Positions 1,041 through 12,409 of a stretch of DNA of 64,000 nt are shown here, piece by piece. Each line of letters opens with the position of its first letter. The stretch's first letter is position 1. The notes beneath the pieces were generated by a model. The model was not told the origin of the DNA. It saw nothing but the letters and a program-made list of their open reading frames with translations, and searched no databases. Origin of the DNA: Eudoraea adriatica DSM 19308 (lineage in GTDB: Bacteria; Bacteroidota; Bacteroidia; Flavobacteriales; Flavobacteriaceae); the NCBI RefSeq assembly GCF_000382125.1, contig NZ_KB907551.1, positions 186,001 through 250,000 on the forward strand. The letters run 5' to 3'. The translations under genes and the position numbers were made by a program.

Positions 1041-1730
1041 ATGAATTACAAAAACCTTATCCTAGACCTCGATAATACTTTATATGGCTACGATGTTCCT
1101 CACAAATCGGCTTTAACAACTGTTTTGGATTCTTTTTCGGCGAGGTTCGAGATTTCCAAAGAAGATACACTCCAAAGCTTTAACGTATCAAGACAGAAAA
1201 CTCACCTGGAATTGCCCTCCAGAGCGGCCTCACACAATAGGTTGCTGTACTTTCAAAAAATGTTGGAATACCATGGCCTCAATAGCATGTACTATGCGTT
1301 GGAATTTTATGAAATCTATTGGGATACCTTTTTGGCCCAGATGTCGCTTTTTGAAAGCGTAGCGGACTATTTGGAAAATCATAAGGCAAAAGGAGGTAAA
1401 ATATGCATCCTCACCGACCTAACGGCTCATATACAGTATAGAAAAATAGAAAAATTGAATCTGATGGATTTTGTCGATTTTTTAGTAACCAGCGAAGAGG
1501 TAGGGGTTGAAAAACCGCATCCGTATATTTTCACTCGAGCATTGCAAAAACTGAATTGTACAGCTTCTGAAGCACTTATGATTGGCGATAGCTGGCAGAA
1601 AGATATCGTTGGTGCGAATGCTATGGGCATACAAAGTATTTGGATCAACCATAAAAAAGAAGAGCGAACAGTAACTGAAAACATAAGGGAGATTTCCCGA
1701 TTTGAAGAAATAGCGACCAATGGAAAATAA
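1041..1730 (+). CDS. HAD-superfamily phosphatase
   Basis: Haloacid-dehalogenase-type phosphohydrolase of 229 residues, predicted cytosolic. Motif I is DLDNT with the nucleophile Asp9 and acid/base Asp11. Motif II is in ILTDLT, motif III is Lys158 in EKPHPY, and motif IV is GDSWQKD with Asp183 and Asp188. The helical cap of about 80 residues between motifs I and II resembles the pyrimidine 5'-nucleotidase/YjjG group. The stop overlaps the next gene, a class II aldolase, by 11 bases, which implies translational coupling and a shared pathway. In this setting it most likely dephosphorylates a sugar- or polyol-phosphate intermediate; that role is inference from the neighbours. Confidence 0.85.
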   Translation: MNYKNLILDLDNTLYGYDVPHKSALTTVLDSFSARFEISKEDTLQSFNVSRQKTHLELPSRAASHNRLLYFQKMLEYHGLNSMYYALEFYEIYWDTFLAQMSLFESVADYLENHKAKGGKICILTDLTAHIQYRKIEKLNLMDFVDFLVTSEEVGVEKPHPYIFTRALQKLNCTASEALMIGDSWQKDIVGANAMGIQSIWINHKKEERTVTENIREISRFEEIATNGK

Positions 1731-2796
1731 AGAAGCACTTGAAGCCCTGATAAAAATGTCAAAATATGCCGGGCAGCGGTTTGACCTTGTGCAGGCCGGT
1801 GGCGGTAATACCTCTGTAAAATTCGGAGATTACATGTATATCAAGGCATCTGGATATCTGCTCTCTGAACTCACAAAAGATACGGGTCATACGATCGTGA
1901 AAACTGAAGAGGTGGTTGCGATATTGAGGGATGATGCCGTTTTAGGAATATCGGATAAAAAAGAAAAGGACGCCACGGCATCGAAAAAGTTACAGATGAC
2001 AAAGGTGAATGATGGCCCAAGACCATCAATTGAAACCTACTTACATGCCTTGTTATACAAATACACCCTGCATGTCCATTCCATTTCGGTAAATATGTTC
2101 ACTTCCCACCAAAACTGGCTGCAAAAAATGGCCGAATTGGATAGTGAGGCACTCTACGTGTGTTATGAGACTCCAGGAATTGAATTAGCACTTGAATTGC
2201 AAAAACAAATGGAGGTATACAAAACAAATTTTGGTCGTCTCCCCCATGTGATTTTTCTGCAGAACCATGGGCTTATCATTAGCTCGGACAACTATGAGGA
2301 TATCGAGGTGTTCAATGAAAAGGTTGTGGTTACTGCTGAGAAAAAAGCGGGAATCGATTTTTCTCGATATCGGGACACTACCAAAATAGCAAACAGCTAC
2401 AATGAAACTTTTCAGCGTGAGGATATTGCCTACCTGTCAGAGGATGCAGTGATTACCGAGCTTTTGAATGCCTTGGATCCTGAGCTGTTGAAGAAGCCTT
2501 TTTCACCAGATGGATATGTGTTCTGTGGCTATACGATGTTGAATGTTGATGAATTACAAACAGCCATTTTTCGAAAGTATCAAGAGCTTTATTTTGATGC
2601 TCCAAAGATTGTACGCTATAATGAAAGCTTATATATCATGGCAGAAGACTTGAAAAAGGCTAAAATGATAGAGGATGTTTTTAAAAACAATCTTTTGATT
2701 GCAAATACACTAGGTTACGATTTGGAATTTTTAGAGGATAGTGAAATCAGCTATTTGGGCAATTGGGAGGCGGAGAAGTACCGACAAAAATTGTAG
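1720..2796 (+). CDS. Class II aldolase/adducin family protein
   Basis: Zinc-dependent class II aldolase or epimerase fold, 358 residues. An early GGGNTSVK segment (residues 27-34) matches the phosphate-binding loop of FucA/RhaD-type aldolases. The metal ligands are visible as Glu105 (SIETYLHALLY), His118 and His120 (HVHS) and His183 (QNHGLI). The protein is longer than FucA (about 215 residues): roughly 130 further residues form an uncharacterised C-terminal domain with no short-chain dehydrogenase signature. Its start lies inside the HAD gene. The family cleaves or builds ketose-1-phosphates; the substrate here is unknown. Presence beside a phosphatase, a kinase domain and a nucleotidyltransferase suggests synthesis of a glycan building block. 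Confidence 0.85.
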   Translation: MENKEALEALIKMSKYAGQRFDLVQAGGGNTSVKFGDYMYIKASGYLLSELTKDTGHTIVKTEEVVAILRDDAVLGISDKKEKDATASKKLQMTKVNDGPRPSIETYLHALLYKYTLHVHSISVNMFTSHQNWLQKMAELDSEALYVCYETPGIELALELQKQMEVYKTNFGRLPHVIFLQNHGLIISSDNYEDIEVFNEKVVVTAEKKAGIDFSRYRDTTKIANSYNETFQREDIAYLSEDAVITELLNALDPELLKKPFSPDGYVFCGYTMLNVDELQTAIFRKYQELYFDAPKIVRYNESLYIMAEDLKKAKMIEDVFKNNLLIANTLGYDLEFLEDSEISYLGNWEAEKYRQKL

Positions 2797-2848
2797 CAAC
2801 CGCCTTCAATCTTTTGCCCCATCAGACCCTAAAGAACATGATTTTAGT

Positions 2849-4423
2849 ATGGCATCGGCATTAGATTTTTCTCGGAATTATTCCTACTTGGCCATTGCGG
2901 GCTTTTTCGGATTTTTGGCCTTCATGTTGCAGCCAACAGCCTATACATGGGGTGAGCAGGATATGATGCCCTTTTTCGAAAGAATATTTGATAAAAACTA
3001 CCTTCCCAATGATTTTTTCACGAATACTACAGTAGTAAAAAATCCGAGATGGGTCTATGGTTATATCATAGTGGCACTCTCTTGGATATCTGGCTTATCT
3101 TGGTATAAGACTTTATATATTCTTAAATTATTTTTAAGTATTTTAAACCCAATTTTGTACTATAAGGTCAGTTACGCTTTGGTTCGTAACTATGTTGACA
3201 AATCGAAATTAAGCGTGTTGGCACCTATAATTTTAGGTGCTGTGGTTCTAATGGTATTTTTAGAAGGCTATCGCGAATTTTTCACTATAGCCTCATGGTT
3301 GAATTATACCCAGGCAATTCAAGCCAACAGCCTTTCATTGGTGTTTTGTCTAAGTGCTATACTTTTGAAAGAAAACGGCGCTAGGTCAATTTTTTATTTA
3401 CTTTTTTTCCTTGCCGGATGTTTAATACATCCTACTGTGGGCTTTTTTGGAGCACTTTTTTATATATTGTTTTTGATTCCTGAATACAAAAAAGAAGGAA
3501 AAAACATCCTTAAGATTGCGCTCTCATGTATACTAGGGATGGCTTTTATAAAAGTTATATTCTCTTCTGACTCTAGTCTCTCGACTTCTGAATTCATAAA
3601 TTATTATGTGCTTGAACGGCATCCATGGCATTATCATGTTCCTTACTACAAGATTTACATAGAAAATTGGATGAGCTTTTTTGTAAAAATCAATTTTTTG
3701 TTTCTAATACCGTTATGTTATGGCATCATAAAAAAGAACAAAAAATTAATTTTATTGGCGGCCCTTTCTTTATTTTTCTATGCAGGTGCAATAACGATTC
3801 AATACGTTTTTATCGATCTTTATCCGGTCAAGATGATAGCATATCTCGGGGTTTCCCGTTTCACTTCTTTCGGTTATTGGATGCTTCTACCCCTCTGGGG
3901 AATTCTATTGGCCGACTTTATTGGAGAAAATAGGCATTTTATTTTTCCGAATCTTAACCTAAAGAATTTCAGACTTATCATAATAAATCTGATTTTTGTA
4001 GGAATTGTATTTCTTGATAATCCAAAGGAAGATAGGTATCGAAAAAAGAAAGATTTTTATGATTTTGTTTCTAGTACGCCCAAAGATGCTATTTTTATTA
4101 CATATTCAACCAAATTGAATACTGATTTAAGAATTATAGGTCGCAGAGGAGTTTTGGTCGGACTCGAGTTTCCGTTCACCGAAATGGCCATTAAGGAGTT
4201 CAGCAATCGTTTCTCAAGTGTGTATGGGTCAAGGCAAAAAGAGCTAAATGGCACCTATTTTTATCGCAACTTGGGAGCTAAGGATTTTCTTGAGATTGCA
4301 AAGAATTATCAGCTTGATTACATAGTAACTGAAAAGTCAGTGGGCAGTCCCTTCGGGGCAAATATTCCTGTTTGGAACAATAATGAATACCAGATATACA
4401 AAGTCAAAAATCTTAGATTGTAA
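2849..4423 (+). CDS. Polytopic membrane protein of the glycan locus, GT-C-like
   Basis: I do not recognise a specific family. The frame is open from 2741, but that part overlaps the aldolase gene; the ATG at 2849 starts just before the first hydrophobic segment and is preferred, giving 524 residues. About ten to twelve hydrophobic helices are visible, with a charged loop after the first (TWGEQDMMPFFERIF) and a soluble C-terminal tail of about 130 residues. This layout, with an acidic motif in the first periplasmic loop, is that of GT-C glycosyltransferases using lipid-phosphate sugars. It is packed 3 bases ahead of the nucleotidyltransferase gene. An O-unit polymerase or acyltransferase role is not excluded. 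Confidence 0.6.
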   Translation: MASALDFSRNYSYLAIAGFFGFLAFMLQPTAYTWGEQDMMPFFERIFDKNYLPNDFFTNTTVVKNPRWVYGYIIVALSWISGLSWYKTLYILKLFLSILNPILYYKVSYALVRNYVDKSKLSVLAPIILGAVVLMVFLEGYREFFTIASWLNYTQAIQANSLSLVFCLSAILLKENGARSIFYLLFFLAGCLIHPTVGFFGALFYILFLIPEYKKEGKNILKIALSCILGMAFIKVIFSSDSSLSTSEFINYYVLERHPWHYHVPYYKIYIENWMSFFVKINFLFLIPLCYGIIKKNKKLILLAALSLFFYAGAITIQYVFIDLYPVKMIAYLGVSRFTSFGYWMLLPLWGILLADFIGENRHFIFPNLNLKNFRLIIINLIFVGIVFLDNPKEDRYRKKKDFYDFVSSTPKDAIFITYSTKLNTDLRIIGRRGVLVGLEFPFTEMAIKEFSNRFSSVYGSRQKELNGTYFYRNLGAKDFLEIAKNYQLDYIVTEKSVGSPFGANIPVWNNNEYQIYKVKNLRL

Positions 4424-4426
4424 TTT

Positions 4427-6076
4427 ATGAAGATCGTTATACCAATGTCCGGTATGGGCAACCGTTTTATAAAAGCAGGTTATGAAACACCGAAGCCCTT
4501 AATTGAGATGGATGGTATCCCCATTATTGAACATGTTGTAAAGATGTTTCCTTCTGAGGAAGACTTTGTTTTCATATGCAATAGCAAACATCTCAAAGAA
4601 ACCAATATGAGGGCAATGCTACAGAGAATTGCTCCGAAGGGTAAAATCGTTGAGATTCCACCTCATAAGAAGGGTCCGGTCTATGCGGTAGACTTTATAG
4701 AAAATCTTATTGAAGACGAGGAAGAGGTTATCGTAAACTATTGCGATTTCTCGTGTTATTGGAATTATACCGACTTTTTAGAACATACACGCTCTCGAGA
4801 TGCAGATGGGGCGGTACCTTCCTATAAAGGCTTTCATCCGCACATGTTAGGCACTACCAATTATGCTTTCATGAGAGATGAAAAACAGTGGATGTTAGAG
4901 ATAAAGGAGAAAGAACCCTTTACCGACAATAGAATGCAAGAATACGCTTCTATGGGCACTTATTACTTCAAAAAAGGAGCATATGTAAAAAAGTATTTTA
5001 AAAGGTTGATGGATGAGGACATTAACCTGAACGGGGAGTATTATGTCAGTCTGATCTATAATCTTTTGGTAAACGACGGACTCAAAGTTTCCATCTATGA
5101 TGTGCAGCATATGTTACAATGGGGCACACCTCAAGATGTTGAAGCGTATAATGGTTTTTCAGATTACTTTAGAGCCGTTTGTGATGAGGCAGCCAGTTCT
5201 GAAGCTCATGACCCCAATGGTATTAATTTGATTCCACTGGCGGGTCTCGGAAGTCGTTTTTCCAAAGAGGGTTATGTGGATCCTAAACCTTTGATTTCGG
5301 TCTCCGGAAAACCTATGATTGTTCAAGCAGCGAATTATTTACCAAAAGCACCCAGAAATATTTTCGTTTGTCTGGAAGAACACCTTGAGAAGTATCCTCT
5401 CGAAAGTGCTATAAAAGCGGTTTATCCTGAGAGTAAAATAGTAACTTTGAACAAAACTACTGAAGGACAGGCCTGCACCTGTGAAGTAGGCCTGGAGAAT
5501 GAAAACCCAGATAGTCCGTTGTTGATAGCTGCCTGTGATAATGGCATGCTATATAACAAAAAAAAGTACGAAGCTTTACTAAACGACACCAATGTGGATG
5601 CGATTGCATGGTCTTTTAGAAACCATCCCAGTAGTGTACGAAATCCTGAAATGTACGGTTGGATTAAAACAGATAAAAATGATATGGTGACCGGGGTAAG
5701 TGTGAAAAAAGCGATCAGCGATACGCCCAGAAAAGACCACGCAATAGTCGGCACATTTTACTTTAGGAAGACCAGTTATTTTTTAGAGGCATTGTCGCGC
5801 ATGTATGAAAAAAATGAAAGGGTAAACGGAGAGTTTTATGTTGATAGCTGTCTAAACGAGCTTGTTGAAATGAAGCTAAATGTGAAGGTATTTGAGATTG
5901 ACCATTACATTGGTTGGGGGACACCTAACGACTATAAAACATTTCAATATTGGCAGAGTTTTTTCCATAAGGCAGAATGGCACCCGTATCGCTTGGAAAA
6001 TGATTTCACCGTAAATCACGGTGCTATAGAAGAAATTGAAAAAGAGTATACTACTTTTCAACAAGAATGGAAATAG
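4427..6076 (+). CDS. Tandem two-domain sugar/alcohol-phosphate nucleotidyltransferase
   Basis: Cytosolic protein of 549 residues containing two complete nucleotidyltransferase domains in a row. Domain 1 (about 1-255) has GMGNR at 9-13, PKP at 22-24 and the metal-binding Asp107 in NYCD. Domain 2 (about 268-549) has GLGSR at 273-277, DPKPL soon after and Asp371 in AACD. Both halves end with a similar WGTP-containing segment (QWGTPQD, GWGTPND), so they look like an internal duplication. The family activates sugar-1-phosphates or phospho-alcohols with CTP, UTP or GTP. Neither nucleotide nor substrate can be told by eye. Both active sites look intact, so two activation reactions in one chain are possible. 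Confidence 0.8.
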   Translation: MKIVIPMSGMGNRFIKAGYETPKPLIEMDGIPIIEHVVKMFPSEEDFVFICNSKHLKETNMRAMLQRIAPKGKIVEIPPHKKGPVYAVDFIENLIEDEEEVIVNYCDFSCYWNYTDFLEHTRSRDADGAVPSYKGFHPHMLGTTNYAFMRDEKQWMLEIKEKEPFTDNRMQEYASMGTYYFKKGAYVKKYFKRLMDEDINLNGEYYVSLIYNLLVNDGLKVSIYDVQHMLQWGTPQDVEAYNGFSDYFRAVCDEAASSEAHDPNGINLIPLAGLGSRFSKEGYVDPKPLISVSGKPMIVQAANYLPKAPRNIFVCLEEHLEKYPLESAIKAVYPESKIVTLNKTTEGQACTCEVGLENENPDSPLLIAACDNGMLYNKKKYEALLNDTNVDAIAWSFRNHPSSVRNPEMYGWIKTDKNDMVTGVSVKKAISDTPRKDHAIVGTFYFRKTSYFLEALSRMYEKNERVNGEFYVDSCLNELVEMKLNVKVFEIDHYIGWGTPNDYKTFQYWQSFFHKAEWHPYRLENDFTVNHGAIEEIEKEYTTFQQEWK

Positions 6077-6173
6077 GATACCGGATTTGATATGAATAAA
6101 ACGTGAAGACGTTTAGCAGGCTAATGAGAAAAAGCGGCATTAACAGAAACCTAACCTAAAATCAAAAAGACGC

Positions 6174-6887
6174 ATGAAATCAAAATTTGGACTACTTGGG
6201 AAATTGGAATTTTTACAAAACCTGAGTTCTAGTTTCATTAGTTCCATAAATCCGGCAGTGATCCATAACATTGAAAAATATATGGCTTTAAAGAAAGCGG
6301 TATATTTAAATTCATTGGAACATCAAACTGGAGACTACCTCGAGTTTGGGGTATATACGGGATCATCTTTTTGCCACGCGATCAAATGCTTTAAAAAGAC
6401 AGAAAAATTCAATCCCTTTCAAAAAGAGACCAAATTTATTGGCTTCGATTCATTCGAAGGCTTCGGGGAATTGGAAGAGGATGATAAACATCCGTTCTAT
6501 GTAGATCAGAATTTTACCACCAGTTATAAAAAGGTAAAAAGAAGAGCCGAGAAGACTTTAAAAGGCTGGGGGGCAGGATGCCAACTTGTACAAGGATACT
6601 TCGAAGAGACCTTAAAGGTTGGTGCAAAGGAGTATGGTATTAATGACATAAGAATGGCATTTATTGACTCAGATACCTATTCGTCTTCGAAATGTGCTTT
6701 CGAATTTATTAAGAACAATGTCAAAAGTGGAACCCATATCATTTTAGATGATTTTTATAGTTACAATGGTGATCCAAAAAAAGGGGTTACTTTGGCATTT
6801 AATGAGTTTTTAAACGAATCGAAGTTTAAATACAGAAAAATTCTGGATTACGGAATGGGGGGAATTGTCGTTGTTCTTTATAAGTAG
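6174..6887 (+). CDS. TylF/MycF-like SAM-dependent O-methyltransferase
   Basis: Class I methyltransferase of 237 residues. The SAM-binding motif I is LEFGVYTGSS, followed by FIGFDSFEGF, a hallmark of TylF/macrocin O-methyltransferases. The metal-binding acidic positions are in AFIDSDTYSS and IILDDFYSY. Members methylate sugar hydroxyls and need a divalent metal, so a methylated sugar on the glycan made here is likely. It sits 97 bases after the nucleotidyltransferase, the widest gap within this part of the locus, but in the same direction and with no visible terminator between. Confidence 0.8.
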   Translation: MKSKFGLLGKLEFLQNLSSSFISSINPAVIHNIEKYMALKKAVYLNSLEHQTGDYLEFGVYTGSSFCHAIKCFKKTEKFNPFQKETKFIGFDSFEGFGELEEDDKHPFYVDQNFTTSYKKVKRRAEKTLKGWGAGCQLVQGYFEETLKVGAKEYGINDIRMAFIDSDTYSSSKCAFEFIKNNVKSGTHIILDDFYSYNGDPKKGVTLAFNEFLNESKFKYRKILDYGMGGIVVVLYK

Positions 6888-6925
6888 ACAATAAAATTTT
6901 AGATATCAAGGAGAAGGTGTTTTTC

Positions 6926-7654
6926 ATGGAGATAAAAGAAAATTTTAAACAGATGAAATTGTCCGTTGTAGTTCCTTGTTATAATGAAGCACAGAACATT
7001 CCTTTAATTCTTAAGGGTTTTGACAAGGTGATTCTACGAAACGATATTGAAGTTGTTCTGGTCAACAATGGCTCAACCGATAATTCACATGACGTACTTG
7101 AGGAATTATTGCCAAAGTACCCTTTTGCTCGAGTGGTGAACGTACAGGTGAACAAAGGGTATGGCTATGGTATCTTATCAGGATTGAAGGAGGCGACAGG
7201 GACCTTTATCGGATGGACCCATGCCGATATGCAGACCGATCCCAATGATGTGATAAAAGCACTTGAGATTATTGAAAATCAATCACATCAAGAAAGTGTT
7301 TATGTAAAAGGCGATCGAAAAGGGCGGCCCTTTTTTGATCAGTTCTTTACGTCGGGCATGAGTCTTTTTGAAACCATTTATATGGGTGAGAACTTGCAGG
7401 ATATCAATGCGCAACCCAATATTTTTCATCGCGATTTCTTTGCCAGTTGGAAGAACCCTCCTCATGATTTTGCCTTAGACCTTTACGCCCTTTATATGGC
7501 AAAGAAACAAAAAATTAAGGTAATAAGGTTCGATGTTTTATTCCCTGAGCGTATTCATGGTACGTCGAGTTGGAATACTGGTTTTGCCGCAAAAAAGAAA
7601 TTCATAAAAAGAACGCTGGATTTCAGTAAAAAACTGAAGAAGAGCTTAAAATAA
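6926..7654 (+). CDS. GT2 glycosyltransferase, polyprenyl-phosphate-sugar synthase type
   Basis: GT-A fold glycosyltransferase beginning with the classic VVPCYNEAQNIP strand-loop, then VLVNNGSTDNS and the DxD-equivalent HADMQTDP. The GYGYGILSGL segment is typical of the DPM1/GtrB-like branch that transfers sugar to polyprenyl phosphate, but no C-terminal membrane helices follow, so the enzyme would be soluble or peripheral. Possible starts are GTG 6917, ATG 6926 and ATG 6953. I chose 6926 because a purine-rich GGAGAAGG lies 9 bases ahead of it; 6953 gives the family-typical MKLSVVVP start. A lipid-linked product would suit the GT-C proteins encoded just downstream. Confidence 0.82.
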   Translation: MEIKENFKQMKLSVVVPCYNEAQNIPLILKGFDKVILRNDIEVVLVNNGSTDNSHDVLEELLPKYPFARVVNVQVNKGYGYGILSGLKEATGTFIGWTHADMQTDPNDVIKALEIIENQSHQESVYVKGDRKGRPFFDQFFTSGMSLFETIYMGENLQDINAQPNIFHRDFFASWKNPPHDFALDLYALYMAKKQKIKVIRFDVLFPERIHGTSSWNTGFAAKKKFIKRTLDFSKKLKKSLK

Positions 7655-7655
7655 T

Positions 7656-8246
7656 ATGGAATATATTGCACATCGTATCAATACAGTATCAGCACTGAAA
7701 GAGCTGCCCATAAGATATGGTGTAGAAATCGACCTAAGGGATGCACTTGACGGTACCGTATACATTGCACATGATCCATTTACAGCTGGTGAAAATTTCG
7801 AAACATATCTGAAGCATTATAAACATGGGACGATGATTTTGAATGTCAAAAGCGAGCGAATAGAATTCAAGGTTTTAGAATTGCTACAAAATTATGGTAT
7901 TTCCAAGTATTTCTTCTTAGATTCCTCTTTCCCTATGATTTATACATTGGCCAATAAGGGAGAGAGAAATATCGCTTTGCGCTTTTCGGAGTTTGAGGGT
8001 ATTGACACATTGGTCAAGATGCAAGGTAAAGTAGATTGGATCTGGGTCGATTGTTTTACCCGCTTGCCTATTGATACGGATTTATTTTTACAGTTCAAGA
8101 AAATGGGCTTTAAACTTTGTTTGGTGTCCCCGGAACTACAAGGCCGAAATGCGGATATCGAAAAGTACAAAGCATATTTAGCGGCACAAGAAGTCGTATT
8201 TGACGCCATATGCACTAAACACTATAATGTTTCGAGATGGCAGTAA
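7656..8246 (+). CDS. GDPD/PI-PLC-fold phosphodiesterase-like protein
   Basis: Small protein (196 residues) with the glycerophosphodiester phosphodiesterase active-site pattern: His6-Arg7, Glu24 and Asp26 in VEIDLRD, and His39-Asp40 in AHDPF. The usual Gly after the HR pair is Ile here. The chain is shorter than typical GDPDs (about 240-300 residues) and has no signal peptide, so it is predicted cytosolic. It starts 1 base after the GT2 gene and overlaps the next gene by 10 bases. The family hydrolyses phosphodiesters with a sugar or glycerol moiety; here it might act on a nucleotide-activated or phosphodiester-linked intermediate. Function is inferred only. Confidence 0.7.
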   Translation: MEYIAHRINTVSALKELPIRYGVEIDLRDALDGTVYIAHDPFTAGENFETYLKHYKHGTMILNVKSERIEFKVLELLQNYGISKYFFLDSSFPMIYTLANKGERNIALRFSEFEGIDTLVKMQGKVDWIWVDCFTRLPIDTDLFLQFKKMGFKLCLVSPELQGRNADIEKYKAYLAAQEVVFDAICTKHYNVSRWQ

Positions 8247-10336
8247 GTGATAGTTTACATTTTTCGCTGAAAGATAAAAAAGGGGTCTTCAAGCTAGAAA
8301 TACTCAGAAATCGGTTATTCTGGATTGGACTAGTCCTGAAAGTAATGCTGTCTTTTCTTTTCGCGGGAAAATTTCTGAAAGAGGCCTTTATTCCTTTTGT
8401 CACCTATTTTTTCGAATCGGGCTTCGATAATCCGTATGAGTTTTTTTATAATTCGGGTGCAGTGGATGCCTTTCCCTATCCACCCTTTATGTTGTATTTT
8501 TTAGGGTTTTTGGGGGGCTTTGCAGCCAATTTGTCCCCGTTTCTGATAAGGATACCCATGCTCTTGGCCGATATTGGCATTCTGCTCGTTTTAAGCAGAC
8601 TTTTAAAGGGTAAGGAGACTAAATTACTGAAGTACTACTGGTTGTCTCCCGTGTTGATTTATATCACCTATATCCACGGGCAGCTCGATGTTGTTCCGAT
8701 TGCTTTTCTTTTGGCGTCTTCCTATTTGCTTTTCAAAAAGAAAAATGTTTTTTCTGCAGTAGTTTTAGGATTGGGCATAGCGGCAAAAACAAATCTTGTA
8801 TTGGTTATTCCTTTCTACGTGCTGTATCTATGGAAAAATAATAACGAGAAGAAATTAGCAAAATTGGTCATACCGGCACTTATTACAGCGCTTGTCTTTT
8901 TCGTTTTAAACCTTCCGTATCTCGACAGTGATTCATTTCTTAAAATGGTGTACGCCAACAGGGAACAACCGAAAGTTTGGAATGCCAGTTTTTCCATGAT
9001 AGGCACCTTGCAGTATTATATCATTCCTGGAGTATATCTCATTTTGTTGGCCACAGCAACGCGATTTAAACGCATCAGTAAAGACCTATTTCTGATATTC
9101 ATAGGTTTTTCGTTTTCCGTACTCTTGATTTTTATTCCCCCGCAGCCAGGTTGGTATTTTTGGATTCTTCCTTTTTTCGTCTATTTCGCCATTCGTGAAA
9201 ATAAGTTCTCGTTTTTACCCATATTGATTTTACAGTTGGCATTCTTCGCCTACTTCGCCCTAACGGCCGATTCTGACTATTTCACGGTATTCTTATTTAG
9301 CGAAAGTAACTTTACGCTTTATGGCTTTTTCGAAGAAAATCAATGGATTTCCATAGCAGTATTACCGAGTTTGGCCTTGACCTTTTTGCAAACCTGTTTG
9401 CTACTCAATGTGTATTGGATTTACAAATGGGGGATTAAAAAAAATCTGGAGAAAAAAATAAAGAACAAACCCTTTTTAATCGGTATTGGTGGTGACTCTG
9501 GGGTTGGAAAATCTACTTTGACTGAATTGCTCACGAATCTTTTTGGCACGGATAATATGACGATTATTAGGGGCGATGACATGCACAAGTGGGAGCGCGG
9601 TCATGACAAATGGGATGAAATCACTCATCTCTCACCAAAGGCGAATCATTTATACGAAGACATCAGTCACCTGAAAACCTTGAAAGATGGCAAAAAGGTA
9701 TTGCGAAGATTTTATGACCACGATACCGGAAAATTTACGGCACCATCCGTTGTGTATCCCAATAAAGTAATTGTTTTTGAAGGATTGCATCCTTTTTATA
9801 TTTCGGCGAAAAGGAATCTTTTTGATCTTAAAGTATTCATAGAACCTGAAGAAAGCCTTCGCTTGCATTGGAAAATTAGTCGTGACATCCAGAAAAGGGA
9901 TTATACAAAAGAAAAAGTCCTCTATCAACTTAGACTTAGAGAAGAAGACAGTAACAAGTACATTCGTTCCCAAGCGCCATTTTCAGATATTAAAGTGGCC
10001 TACTACGCTATTGATGATATTGCTGATATAGGCAATGGTGAAGACGTCGAATTGGCACTCCGAGTAGAACTAGAAACCAATATTGATATTAATGACCTCT
10101 TAGATAAGTTGAGAGATTATCCTACCTTGCAAATTGCTCATGATTATGGTGTGAGCAATCAAGTATTAAATGTAAGAGGAACGATTTTAAGTAGTGAAAT
10201 CAAAGAATCGACGTACGGCTTTATTGGTGATTATGACGAGTTTATAGAAGACGTGGTTTTCCAAAATGACCTTAACGGATTTTTACAGTTATTTTTTGTG
10301 TACTGTATCGTATATAAAGCCAAAAACAAATCATAG
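8237..10336 (+). CDS. GT-C-like membrane protein fused to a uridine kinase/phosphoribulokinase-like domain
   Basis: A 699-residue fusion. Residues 1 to about 400 are polytopic, with around ten helices, and resemble DUF2029/mannosyltransferase-type GT-C proteins (SPVLIYITYIHGQLDV loop; AAKTNLVLVIPF). From about 412 a soluble P-loop kinase follows: Walker A GDSGVGKS with Lys425, then RGDDMHKWERG, FYDHDTG and VIVFEGLHPFY, all recognisable equivalents of the uridine kinase/phosphoribulokinase family. A tail of about 90 residues ends in a hydrophobic stretch. I see no stop or frameshift between the halves. Overlap with the upstream gene and zero spacing to the next gene mark one operon. The kinase would face the cytoplasm; its substrate is unknown. 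Confidence 0.8.
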   Translation: MAVSDSLHFSLKDKKGVFKLEILRNRLFWIGLVLKVMLSFLFAGKFLKEAFIPFVTYFFESGFDNPYEFFYNSGAVDAFPYPPFMLYFLGFLGGFAANLSPFLIRIPMLLADIGILLVLSRLLKGKETKLLKYYWLSPVLIYITYIHGQLDVVPIAFLLASSYLLFKKKNVFSAVVLGLGIAAKTNLVLVIPFYVLYLWKNNNEKKLAKLVIPALITALVFFVLNLPYLDSDSFLKMVYANREQPKVWNASFSMIGTLQYYIIPGVYLILLATATRFKRISKDLFLIFIGFSFSVLLIFIPPQPGWYFWILPFFVYFAIRENKFSFLPILILQLAFFAYFALTADSDYFTVFLFSESNFTLYGFFEENQWISIAVLPSLALTFLQTCLLLNVYWIYKWGIKKNLEKKIKNKPFLIGIGGDSGVGKSTLTELLTNLFGTDNMTIIRGDDMHKWERGHDKWDEITHLSPKANHLYEDISHLKTLKDGKKVLRRFYDHDTGKFTAPSVVYPNKVIVFEGLHPFYISAKRNLFDLKVFIEPEESLRLHWKISRDIQKRDYTKEKVLYQLRLREEDSNKYIRSQAPFSDIKVAYYAIDDIADIGNGEDVELALRVELETNIDINDLLDKLRDYPTLQIAHDYGVSNQVLNVRGTILSSEIKESTYGFIGDYDEFIEDVVFQNDLNGFLQLFFVYCIVYKAKNKS

Positions 10337-12409
10337 ATGAAGAACAGCACGCCCTATTTATTTTTTGCCAAGTATAAATTGTTCATTATGGCCGTGGTGG
10401 TATTGTTTTTTACCGTGGTAGCGCTTCAAGTAAATTACAACAAAAACGGAATGCACAAGTCTAGCGTCGATGAGTATTTTACAATATCTACGATACATCC
10501 GAAAATAACGCCTGAAAAAATGACATATCGAGCTCTTAATGGGCCTAGAATGTTCACCTATTTATTTTACCCAGGGGCTTTGGTAGGCATGATAAATCAC
10601 ATGGGAGGTAATATTTATGAAGATGGATGGAAATACCCTGGCCATAATTACTTCGTAAGGAATTATCAAACAACAAGCACTTCCATCAAAAACAACATGA
10701 AAGACCCCAATTTGAGGTATTTTCATTATTATCTGAAATTTCAGGCGATTATTTTGGTGTTTTTGTCCTTCATTCCAGTACTTTATTTGTTATGGAAACG
10801 AAATCTTTTTGTAGCCATGTTTATGATGTCCACTTTGGTAGGCATAAATTTTTTATTCCTTAAAGAGCGGAACTTTTTTTACATCGAACCATTGTTGGTT
10901 TCAATGATGAGCATACTGACGTGGCTGTATTTAGTCATTTCAGAAAAAAAACGGATAAGTTGGTTTTGGGTCCTTTTTTCGGCCTTCCTTTTTGCAATTA
11001 CCATTTCACTTAAATTTTCTTGCTTGTTCATTCTTGTGTTAATTGGCATATTGATATGCTCAAAATTCAAAACACTTGAAAAGCGAATAAAGGCTGTAGC
11101 CCTATTGATTGTAGGTTTCGTGTTTTTCTTTTGTTTGATCAATTGGGATTTATTTTACAGTAAAGAAGTATTTAACAAGGTGGTGCACGATTATTTCTCT
11201 AATTTTTGGCAATATGCAACAGGCAGCAGAGGCCCAATGGTAGAGGATTATAAACTTCATAATTTAAAACAAATCATTGGTGAAATATTCAGTTCACTCG
11301 GAGGTCTGGTCTTTTTGTTCCCCGTAATTATTTTTTACGGATTACGATGGTCTTCGAAAGGTGCGAGGGTTAGCTGGGGCATATATACGTTTGTCATCCT
11401 ATTGTCCGTAGGTTTTATTGTAAAACAACAGGTTTATATTGACCGAAACATCCTTCCTTTTTTACCTGCCTTGGTATTGATTACTGGGGTGAATCTAGAT
11501 TTCATAGTCAAAAGACTTTTGACAAAGGATGTTTTTAAGCAAAAGGCGAAACCGTTATACCTGTATGTATTGCTTGGGTTGCTCATTTTTGTGCCCATTT
11601 GGGGCAGTTCAAAGAACTATTTAAAAAGAATAGCACCAAGTGCCAAAAAGAATATTACGGCTGTGCTGAGCAGTATTGAAAACCCTGATGAGCGAAGGTT
11701 GATTACCATTGATTATAATAAAGATCTAAGTACTAAAAATTTTAAAAGCACCAAAGAAATGCCTTCGGCACCTATAACCAACAAGGAAAACTTTAAAGAA
11801 TTCATCAAAAAGAATCTACTCGAATTTGAGTCAACGGATGTCGTGGTGGTTACCGAAATCAATAATAACAAGCAGCTTACGAATTACTTATTGCCCAACA
11901 TATTTAATACGAATAAACAGTTCGCAAATCATTTCATATTCTACAATACTGAAAAAGAAAATAAGACGTATCGTGCGTATGATGATTTTCAAAGAAATTA
12001 CAAGAAAAAAGAGGTGAAAATGCTACTGAACGACTCGATTGCCATTCGAGAAGATTTGGTTTTAAGAGAGGTGAAAATAGCGAAGACCAAAACAGGGCAA
12101 CGTTTATTCCTGAAGTTTGATTTTTTGACCGTTACAACAAGAGATTGGAATGGTTGTAGGATTTATTTTCATGGCAAAGCCTATGAAGAAGATGTAGAAA
12201 GACTTCCCGAGGATAGAATCCGTCATGGGTATGAAGGCTGGGATTTTTCGGTAAACCAGACCAATACGTTAAAGTATGGAAACACCATGTATGTATTCCA
12301 AGATTTCGATCCGACCCTTGAGAAATATAAAGAATTTTCTTTAGGCATTTTTCGAGGTTGTACAACAAGTAAAGAATTCAAAGTAGCAAACATTGTTCTT
12401 CCAGAGTAA
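10337..12409 (+). CDS. GT-C family integral membrane glycosyltransferase
   Basis: Protein of 690 residues starting directly after the stop of the fusion gene. One helix at about 16-33 is followed by a periplasmic loop containing SSVDEYFTI; the acidic pair Asp45-Glu46 sits where GT-C enzymes (ArnT/PMT type) hold their catalytic Asp/Glu. Some ten further helices follow, then a soluble C-terminal domain of about 250 residues with β-rich character. Such enzymes use polyprenyl-phosphate sugars as donors on the periplasmic side, which fits the GT2 of the polyprenyl-phosphate type four genes upstream. Acceptor and sugar cannot be determined. Confidence 0.75.
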   Translation: MKNSTPYLFFAKYKLFIMAVVVLFFTVVALQVNYNKNGMHKSSVDEYFTISTIHPKITPEKMTYRALNGPRMFTYLFYPGALVGMINHMGGNIYEDGWKYPGHNYFVRNYQTTSTSIKNNMKDPNLRYFHYYLKFQAIILVFLSFIPVLYLLWKRNLFVAMFMMSTLVGINFLFLKERNFFYIEPLLVSMMSILTWLYLVISEKKRISWFWVLFSAFLFAITISLKFSCLFILVLIGILICSKFKTLEKRIKAVALLIVGFVFFFCLINWDLFYSKEVFNKVVHDYFSNFWQYATGSRGPMVEDYKLHNLKQIIGEIFSSLGGLVFLFPVIIFYGLRWSSKGARVSWGIYTFVILLSVGFIVKQQVYIDRNILPFLPALVLITGVNLDFIVKRLLTKDVFKQKAKPLYLYVLLGLLIFVPIWGSSKNYLKRIAPSAKKNITAVLSSIENPDERRLITIDYNKDLSTKNFKSTKEMPSAPITNKENFKEFIKKNLLEFESTDVVVVTEINNNKQLTNYLLPNIFNTNKQFANHFIFYNTEKENKTYRAYDDFQRNYKKKEVKMLLNDSIAIREDLVLREVKIAKTKTGQRLFLKFDFLTVTTRDWNGCRIYFHGKAYEEDVERLPEDRIRHGYEGWDFSVNQTNTLKYGNTMYVFQDFDPTLEKYKEFSLGIFRGCTTSKEFKVANIVLPE

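What the first reader, a model, noticed from the sequence alone, without database searches (positions are those of the whole stretch)
1041..12409. Candidate uncharacterised pathway for a phospho-activated polyol or sugar within a surface-glycan locus
One tight run of genes joins a HAD phosphatase, a class II aldolase with intact Zn ligands, a nucleotidyltransferase with two full active sites, a cytosolic GDPD-fold protein, a uridine kinase/phosphoribulokinase-like domain fused to a membrane GT, a GT2 of the polyprenyl-phosphate type and GT-C proteins. Overlaps of 11 and 10 bases and gaps of 0-3 bases show coupling. Established knowledge: kinase, aldolase, phosphatase and nucleotidyltransferase are the parts needed to make and activate a small sugar or polyol phosphate. 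Inference: the locus makes a nucleotide-activated building block that I cannot match to a pathway known to me, then transfers it in lipid-linked form.
Basis: partly seen in the sequence, partly recalled or inferred. Interest (0 to 1): 0.72.

Follow-up and report, generated by a model that had tools for sequence, protein, structure and literature searches.

The report
Surface-sugar gene cassette, probably ribulose-based
A block of six neighbouring genes, found in distantly related bacteria, on plasmids and in reduced form in viruses of cyanobacteria, appears to turn a five-carbon sugar phosphate best known from photosynthesis into a building block for the cell's outer sugar coat; the product is still unknown.

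Summary
The window (Flavobacteriaceae) carries HAD phosphatase, class II aldolase, double nucleotidyltransferase (NTP2), GT2, a small GDPD-fold protein and a GT87-phosphoribulokinase-like fusion. All six families recur in 18 of 21 loci of a genome scan, and on E. coli, Azospirillum and Hirschia plasmids. In 397 Flavobacteriaceae genomes, full-length NTP2, kinase fusion and aldolase mark the same six. NTP2 is fused to GT2 in one genome.

Best reading: kinase makes ribulose 1,5-bisphosphate (RuBP), HAD makes ribulose 1-phosphate, aldolase remodels it, NTP2 activates it, GT2/GtrA/GT87 transfer it lipid-linked. Key evidence: 25 of 25 aligned copies from other hosts keep eight kinase catalytic positions; 0 of 8 copies from RuBisCO-bearing relatives of Prochlorococcus do, though the other enzymes stay intact. 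These eight form two lineages (one clade rejected, p=7e-5): probably two losses, where the host's own phosphoribulokinase supplies RuBP. Two cyanophages carry aldolase and NTP2 without such a kinase.

Unresolved: final sugar, nucleotide, and roles of the second NTP domain and the GDPD. Curated HAD and kinase cut-offs are not reached. Nothing was assayed.

The parts
1041..1730 (+). HAD phosphatase (core); best curated model is ribulose-1,5-bisphosphate 5-phosphatase
   Evidence: NF053830 185.7 bits, below its cut-off of 330; D9, D11, T125, K158, G182, D183 invariant in 27 sequences
1720..2796 (+). class II (Zn) aldolase (core), 358 aa with an unannotated C-terminal extension
   Evidence: PF00596; H118, H120, H183 and E105 invariant in 25; model pLDDT 94.1 matches 3m4r and FucA structures
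2849..4423 (+). membrane protein, about 524 aa, possibly GT-C (local addition)
   Evidence: no Pfam hit; six hydrophobic segments by a simple script; homologues in 8 of the 21 loci
4427..6076 (+). double nucleotidyltransferase NTP2 (core), two domains with complete motifs
   Evidence: PF12804/PF00483; motif table; full length in 6 of 397 family genomes
6174..6887 (+). TylF-like methyltransferase (accessory); stands where many relatives have GtrA
   Evidence: PF05711; in 5 of 21 loci; a homologue is fused to a GtrA-like domain in L066 4857-5999
6917..7654 (+). GT2 glycosyltransferase, probably polyprenyl-phosphate-sugar synthase (core)
   Evidence: PF00535; fused to NTP2 in L080 9299-11575; GtrA neighbour in many relatives
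7656..8246 (+). small GDPD-fold protein, probably a phosphodiesterase (core)
   Evidence: model and fold match; H6, R7, E24, D26, H39, N63, K65 invariant in 28; no hydrophobic segment
8237..10336 (+). fusion of GT87 membrane glycosyltransferase (about 1-400) and phosphoribulokinase-like kinase (about 409-699) (core)
   Evidence: PF09594 and PF00485; PRK07429 212.5 bits; eight catalytic positions identical in 25 of 25 aligned copies outside the Prochlorococcus family
10337..12409 (+). large membrane protein, 690 aa, probably GT-C (local addition)
   Evidence: no Pfam hit; ten hydrophobic segments; in 9 of the 21 loci

Best explanation
A transferable six-gene cassette makes a ketopentose-phosphate-derived building block and places it on a surface glycan. 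Proposed steps: (1) the kinase domain phosphorylates ribulose 5-phosphate (or a near relative) to RuBP; (2) the HAD removes the 5-phosphate to give ribulose 1-phosphate; (3) the Zn aldolase acts on this ketose 1-phosphate, either as a retro-aldol/aldol epimerase or by exchanging DHAP and an aldehyde; (4) NTP2 couples the product, perhaps in two stages, to a nucleotide; (5) GT2 moves the unit to polyprenyl phosphate; (6) GtrA, where present, flips it; (7) the GT87 half of the fusion transfers it outside the membrane. Shown by sequence: the parts, their conserved active sites, their co-occurrence, the NTP2-GT2 fusion, and the decay of the kinase in RuBisCO-bearing hosts. Inferred: every substrate and product. 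Open: the identity of the final unit, the need for two NTP domains, and the role of the GDPD. A ketose 1-phosphate is not an anomeric phosphate, so at least one step between (2) and (5) is not understood.
For: Co-occurrence: all six families in 18 of 21 loci (in L047 and L050 the two NTP domains are separate genes, in L048 the kinase is decayed), in L023, in 7 of 11 further loci of the Prochlorococcus family, in L080 and on three plasmids; the same 6 of 397 family genomes for full-length NTP2, kinase fusion and aldolase. Kinase: PRK07429 is the best NCBIfam model in 8 of 8 tested; PRK-type D-x2-H-x3-R and Y-x-H positions in 25 of 25 aligned copies outside that family. HAD: the RuBP 5-phosphatase model is best in 11 of 11 tested and in 0 of 3 control HADs. 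Precedent: in haloarchaea a HAD RuBP phosphatase and a FucA-type ribulose-1-phosphate aldolase are encoded in an operon and act in sequence (PMC9700705, abstract and passages). Natural experiment: the kinase has decayed in 8 of 8 full cassettes of the Prochlorococcus family, whose genomes all have RuBisCO (in G432 only partial hits at contig ends) and a stand-alone ~300-aa PRK; the kinase part is less conserved than the GT87 part in 28 of 28 pairs there, against 18 of 210 pairs among 21 other copies; catalytic residues of the other enzymes persist; no other kinase gene is shared by these loci; one clade for the decayed copies is rejected, p=6.9e-5. Two cyanophages carry NTP2 and a class II aldolase, and S-SM2 also HAD-like and GDPD-like small genes by my reading; no Synechococcus phage matched the kinase query. 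More distant NTP2 loci use RPE-like epimerases, again pentulose-phosphate enzymes.
Against: HAD and kinase scores are below the curated cut-offs (150-200 against 330; 179-216 against 236), so neither is assigned by those models. The aldolase model matches ketose-phosphate aldolases, an epimerase and others of the family. G994 has an intact kinase and a weak RuBisCO-like match (E 1.6e-19, 375 aa). Two RuBisCO-negative genomes with NTP2 show no fused kinase: G806 (only a 237-aa PRK-family ORF) and G424, the Sulfurospirillum MAG of L041 (no PRK-family match at all); in both the contig ends inside NTP2, so the assemblies may simply lack the gene. L049 has no recognisable aldolase in the stretch fetched. 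The hosts of the three intact plasmid copies that split the decayed copies on the tree were not searched for RuBisCO. Two changes on the tree could be one loss and one regain by transfer. The decayed domain is kept as sequence, so it may have another role. The phages carry other genes annotated as kinases (SSM2_200, Bellamy 215). Small cyanobacterial genomes lose genes readily in general (my knowledge).
Confidence: 0.52

Rival explanations
1. The kinase phosphorylates a different ketose or sugar phosphate (for example xylulose 5-phosphate or fructose 6-phosphate), and the cassette makes a ketose of another type by the same logic; the kinase decayed in cyanobacteria because a different host enzyme supplies that product.
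For: PRK-family enzymes differ in substrate; scores are below the curated cut-offs; distant relatives swap in a class II FBP-aldolase-like domain and RPE-like epimerases, which could act on other ketose phosphates.
Against: Residues I recall as ribulose-5-phosphate binding in PRK (D, H, R, Y, H) are invariant in 25 of 25; all 8 genomes with a decayed kinase have a stand-alone PRK.
Confidence: 0.25
2. The aldolase runs in the cleavage direction, and the activated unit is a two- or three-carbon fragment (glycolaldehyde- or DHAP-derived) rather than a pentulose.
For: The haloarchaeal ribulose-1-phosphate aldolase yields DHAP and glycolaldehyde (PMC9700705); the small GDPD-fold protein would suit a glycerophosphate-like diester.
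Against: No gene family that could process a C2 unit is common to the eight loci of the Prochlorococcus family (within the stretches fetched); DHAP alone would not need this route.
Confidence: 0.15
3. Two unrelated pathways lie side by side: NTP2, GDPD and GT2 make one residue, and kinase, HAD and aldolase another.
For: NTP + NTP + HAD + GDPD modules in which I saw no kinase or aldolase exist (L026-L028 and, by annotation, a P. aeruginosa plasmid).
Against: All six families persist in 8 of 8 divergent loci of the Prochlorococcus family, where the next most shared families are GtrA (5 loci) and an epimerase-like one (3 loci); aldolase and NTP2 stay together in two cyanophages.
Confidence: 0.12
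4. Ordinary glycan gene neighbourhood with no shared pathway; coincidence of common families.
For: Each superfamily alone is common (established knowledge).
Against: Same six of 397 genomes for three different parts; recurrence across phyla, plasmids and phages; fusion of NTP2 and GT2.
Confidence: 0.02

Closest known systems
Non-carboxylating pentose bisphosphate pathway of halophilic archaea (PMC9700705; abstract and passages seen)
   Same: RuBP, a HAD RuBP 5-phosphatase and a FucA-family ribulose-1-phosphate aldolase used in sequence
   Different: There it is nucleoside breakdown, with ribose 1-phosphate kinase and an isomerase upstream; here a PRK-like kinase is fused to a glycosyltransferase inside glycan loci, with nucleotidyltransferases and a GT2
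GtrA/GtrB/Gtr lipid-linked sugar transfer systems (recalled; GtrA domain found in relatives)
   Same: GT2, GtrA and a multi-membrane glycosyltransferase
   Different: Carries its own sugar-making enzymes; the window itself has a methyltransferase in place of GtrA
CDP-6-D-fructose / CDP-6-D-glucitol pathway of Campylobacter jejuni HS:5 (PMC10918830; passages seen)
   Same: A nucleotidyltransferase activates a ketose phosphate for a surface glycan
   Different: IspD-type enzyme (PF01128) with an SDR reductase; the pathway as given needs no kinase, aldolase, HAD or GDPD; single nucleotidyltransferase
Calvin-cycle phosphoribulokinase
   Same: Sequence family and motifs
   Different: Fused to a GT87 membrane enzyme; 16 of 17 genomes with an intact fused kinase that were searched have no RuBisCO match

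Membership tests
Phosphoribulokinase (PF00485 / PRK07429) | Walker A lysine, catalytic Asp, H and R of D-x2-H-x3-R, Y-x-H motif (roles recalled) | tested here: met
   25 of 25 aligned copies outside the Prochlorococcus family; alignment with solved PRKs
Phosphoribulokinase (PF00485 / PRK07429) | Score over the curated cut-off of PRK07429 (236 bits) | tested here: not met
   179-216 bits in 8 of 8 tested; the PF00485 cut-off is met by the window protein
Phosphoribulokinase (PF00485 / PRK07429) | Phosphorylates ribulose 5-phosphate at O1 | not testable with these tools
   needs an assay; indirect support from decay in RuBisCO-bearing hosts
RuBP 5-phosphatase (NF053830) | Score over the curated cut-off of 330 bits | tested here: not met
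   150-200 bits in 11 of 11 tested, though always the best model
RuBP 5-phosphatase (NF053830) | HAD catalytic residues | tested here: met
   D9, D11, T125, K158, D183 invariant in 27
Class II aldolase (PF00596) | Three Zn-binding His and catalytic Glu | tested here: met
   invariant in 25 sequences
Class II aldolase (PF00596) | Aldolase rather than epimerase or dehydratase | tested here: inconclusive
   Glu105 as in FucA (recalled), but dehydratases of the family also have Glu (recalled); the fold search lists aldolases and an epimerase together
GDPD (PF03009) | GDPD fold with HR...ExD...HD motif | tested here: met
   H6, R7, E24, D26, H39 invariant in 28; the D after H39 is not invariant; fold
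GDPD (PF03009) | Score over the Pfam gathering cut-off | tested here: not met
   no hit for the window, L048 or L072 proteins
GDPD (PF03009) | Second acidic metal ligand (E-x-K; recalled) | tested here: not met
   N63-x-K65 instead, invariant in 28
GtrA/GtrB/Gtr-type lipid-linked transfer | GT2 plus GtrA plus membrane glycosyltransferase | tested here: inconclusive
   GtrA in 12 of the 21 loci (11 by clustering, plus L048; two proteins checked by Pfam); not seen in the window cassette, which has GT2 and GT87

The most novel reading that the evidence does not exclude
RuBP, best known as the CO2 acceptor of the Calvin cycle, is a precursor of a surface glycan residue in bacteria of several phyla. 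Bacteria without a Calvin cycle carry a private phosphoribulokinase fused to the membrane glycosyltransferase that uses the end product; cyanobacteria of the Prochlorococcus family and their phages dispense with that kinase and draw on the host's Calvin-cycle RuBP.
Probability: 0.42. Interest if true: 0.85.

Novelty: new variant of a known kind. Interest (0 to 1): 0.74.

Why it matters
It would be an activated-sugar pathway that I found described in no paper of the library searched, a further use for RuBP beside CO2 fixation and nucleoside breakdown, and a way for cyanophages to tap the Calvin cycle for coat glycans. It also gives a testable role to a small GDPD-fold family and to double nucleotidyltransferases annotated today as 'NTP transferase domain-containing' or 'hypothetical' proteins.

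Tried and rejected
Chance neighbourhood: rejected by the counts. Uridine kinase as the function of the fused kinase: disfavoured (212.5 against 72.5 bits). Polyol pathway: I see no reductase in this cassette; an MDR dehydrogenase occurs in the distant L071/L072 variant. Viral-contig scan with NTP2: no relative, though the annotated phage collection gave 19 records, two of which (L098, L099) I compared with the cassette and a third (L103) I only listed. Paper searches for the set, for an NTP-phosphodiesterase-HAD module and for pentulose residues gave nothing I could use (listings only; a review of giant-virus glycans that names xylulofuranose was not read); none of the 10 papers listed for the cyanobacterial PRK structures was on them. 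G806 and G424 were looked at as possible counter-examples and are uninformative because their contigs end inside NTP2. The fold of the aldolase did not separate aldolase from epimerase. A first tree without the proteobacterial plasmids placed the decayed copies together; adding them split the group.

Rows dropped before counts: L020, L021, L022 and L024 are the same contigs as L037, L045, L036 and L038, and G431 is the same genome as G183; they were not counted twice. L035 and L037 gave near-identical matches and both are counted among the 21 loci. The tree holds 21 of the 31 loci with all six families; left out were L030, L031, L032, L034, L035, L036, L037, L045, L047 and L050. L033 was not searched for PRK or RuBisCO because its genome is not held; the genomes of L030-L032, L035 and L095-L097 were not searched for RuBisCO either.


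Full report
WHAT IS THERE. From 1041 to 12409 on the + strand it encodes a HAD phosphatase, a class II aldolase, a membrane protein, a double nucleotidyltransferase (NTP2), a TylF-like methyltransferase, a GT2, a small GDPD-like protein, a fusion of GT87 with a phosphoribulokinase/uridine-kinase domain, and a second large membrane protein. A further GT2, a WbaP-like sugar-phosphate transferase and a UDP-sugar decarboxylase-like gene follow (names by my reading of the sequence).

THE SET IS CONSERVED. A scan of one genome per species with NTP2 gave 21 loci in Flavobacteriaceae and other Bacteroidota, Campylobacterota (Poseidonibacter, Sulfurospirillum, Campylobacterales), Gastranaerophilales, Obscuribacterales and Prochlorococcus. 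HAD, aldolase, NTP2, GT2, GDPD and the GT87 fusion are all present in 18 of the 21; among these, L047 and L050 have the two NTP domains as separate genes and a divergent aldolase, and L048 has a decayed kinase. Two of the three misses (L041, L046) are cut by a contig end inside NTP2; the third (L049) has no recognisable aldolase in the stretch, separate NTP genes, and a different, Pfam-recognised GDPD. In 397 Flavobacteriaceae genomes, full-length NTP2, the GT87-kinase fusion and the aldolase were each found in 6, and these are the same six genomes (limits 1e-20, 1e-40 and 1e-15; the NTP2 query also gave partial or single-domain matches in four other genomes). None of nine sampled relatives of the same genus matched NTP2 at 1e-10, as expected of an exchangeable surface-glycan locus. 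Plasmids carry the whole set in Escherichia coli (an IncR plasmid, and a stretch of 100.0% identity between two IS26 copies in a second strain; 2 of 5426 E. coli genomes), Azospirillum brasilense and Hirschia baltica. On the trees the Flavobacterium phragmitis copy lies with Campylobacterota, so the cassette has moved between phyla. With the window, L023, seven loci, L080 and the three plasmids, that makes 31 loci with all six families.

LINKS WITHIN THE SET. In genome G994 NTP2 and GT2 are one protein of 758 aa (L080 9299-11575), a direct sign that they serve one pathway. A GtrA protein lies between NTP2 and GT2 in 12 of the 21 loci (11 by clustering, plus the Prochlorococcus copy; two checked by Pfam). 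The window and five of the 21 have the methyltransferase there instead; in L066 a GtrA-like domain is fused to a methyltransferase like the window's. GT2, GtrA and a GT-C enzyme are the usual parts of lipid-linked sugar transfer (established knowledge).

ACTIVE SITES. Aldolase: E105, H118, H120, H183 invariant in 25. HAD: D9, D11, T125, K158, G182, D183 invariant in 27. GDPD: H6, R7, E24, D26, H39, N63, K65 invariant in 28, with a confident model (pLDDT 96.5) that matches GDPD structures; N63 stands where I recall an acidic residue in classical GDPDs. NTP2: glycine-rich loops, Asp motifs and the GTP/NGE motifs of both domains are kept, with small changes, in 13 of the 17 rows printed, and weaken in the other four, the distant variants L070-L073.

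WHICH SUBSTRATE. The kinase domain scores best with PRK07429 phosphoribulokinase in 8 of 8 tested, far above uridine kinase, and its alignment with solved PRKs keeps the D-x2-H-x3-R and Y-x-H-x-T-G motifs. The HAD scores best with the haloarchaeal RuBP 5-phosphatase model in 11 of 11 tested, while 3 of 3 control HADs have other best models. All these scores are below the curated cut-offs. In haloarchaea, RuBP phosphatase makes ribulose 1-phosphate, and a FucA-type aldolase encoded beside it acts on that product (PMC9700705, abstract and passages). The window's trio therefore mirrors a proven chemical sequence, but inside a glycan locus.

A NATURAL EXPERIMENT. In Prochlorococcus L048 the fused kinase has lost its P-loop. 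I then searched 350 genomes of that genome's family (unnamed by the tool); 12 had NTP2, L048's own included. L048 and seven of the eleven others carry all six families. In all eight the kinase is decayed: of eight catalytic positions, 25 of 25 aligned copies from other hosts keep all eight, the eight copies here 0 of 8. The kinase half there is less conserved than the GT87 half in 28 of 28 pairs, against 18 of 210 pairs among 21 other copies. In the stretches fetched the eight loci share the six families; the next most shared are GtrA (5 loci) and an epimerase-like family (3 loci), and no other kinase gene is shared. All eight host genomes have a stand-alone PRK ORF of about 300 aa and RuBisCO, with only partial hits at contig ends in G432. 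Of 17 distinct genomes with an intact fused kinase searched for RuBisCO, 16 have no match and one (G994) a weak RuBisCO-like match of 375 aa. Two further RuBisCO-negative genomes with NTP2, G806 and G424, show no fused kinase at all, but their contigs end inside NTP2. A tree of 21 of the 31 loci from the six proteins, kinase columns left out, places the eight decayed copies in two groups, separated by the intact copies from Azospirillum, E. coli and Hirschia (whose genomes I did not search for RuBisCO); one clade is rejected (p-AU 6.9e-5), and the label needs two changes. The tool flagged uneven letter make-up, and the model was LG+G4 without mixture. The simplest reading is two losses, each in cells that make RuBP anyway; one loss and a regain by transfer is not excluded.

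PHAGES AND VARIANTS. Synechococcus phages S-SM2 and Bellamy carry NTP2 (about 40% identity to the E. coli plasmid copy) and a class II aldolase; S-SM2 also has a 103-aa gene with an HAD-like DxD start and a 148-aa GDPD-like gene right after the aldolase (these two by my reading; the record names the first a phosphoheptose isomerase). No Synechococcus phage matched the kinase query, though both phages have other genes annotated as kinases. This agrees with the host supplying RuBP. RPE is a pentulose-phosphate epimerase family, so the theme stays the same.

MECHANISM AND LIMITS. I propose RuBP to ribulose 1-phosphate, remodelling by the aldolase, nucleotide activation, transfer to a lipid carrier and then to the glycan. 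The substrates are inferred. A ketose 1-phosphate is not an anomeric phosphate, so the route to a glycosyl donor is incomplete; the second NTP domain and the GDPD may fill that gap. NTP + NTP + HAD + GDPD modules in which I saw no kinase or aldolase also exist, which suggests that these four do a common job with different inputs.

VERDICT. A real, conserved, mobile gene set with no description found in the papers I could search. It is most likely a new variant of a known kind (activated-sugar synthesis with lipid-linked transfer), with a good though unproven case that its input is RuBP.

Noticed in passing
L026 9513-12535, L027 7429-10818, L028 8149-11524; L101 7998-11148: A smaller recurring module of two single-domain nucleotidyltransferases, a HAD (beta-phosphoglucomutase-like in the two tested), a GDPD-like protein and a small cupin-like protein in Flavobacteriaceae and on a Pseudomonas aeruginosa plasmid; function unknown to me.
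   Followed up: partly
L070 8064-14218, L073 7200-14509, L071 4286-9852, L072 4176-10659: Distant NTP2 loci in the Prochlorococcus family with swapped upstream enzymes, including a 1293-aa protein with FBP-aldolase and RPE-family domains after a P-loop.
   Followed up: partly
L098 9582-14060; L099 10001-13303: Cyanophages S-SM2 and Bellamy carry NTP2 and a class II aldolase among other glycan genes.
   Followed up: partly
L095 6022-14984; L100 3774-12736: The whole cassette on small E. coli plasmids from human stool and frog-farm sediment; between two IS26 copies in the second, where an AIDA-repeat fragment lies beside it.
   Followed up: partly
L048 9595-11679 and its homologues in L063-L069: The decayed kinase domain is kept as a long tail rather than deleted, so it may have a structural or regulatory role.
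   Followed up: no
window 6174-6887; L066 4857-5999: The TylF-like methyltransferase stands in the place of GtrA, and a homologue is fused to a GtrA-like domain in L066; the window cassette itself has no visible flippase.
   Followed up: partly
window 2362-2793 (aldolase residues about 215-358): A C-terminal extension of the aldolase, mostly confidently folded in the model, outside the Pfam domain; much shorter in L080.
   Followed up: no
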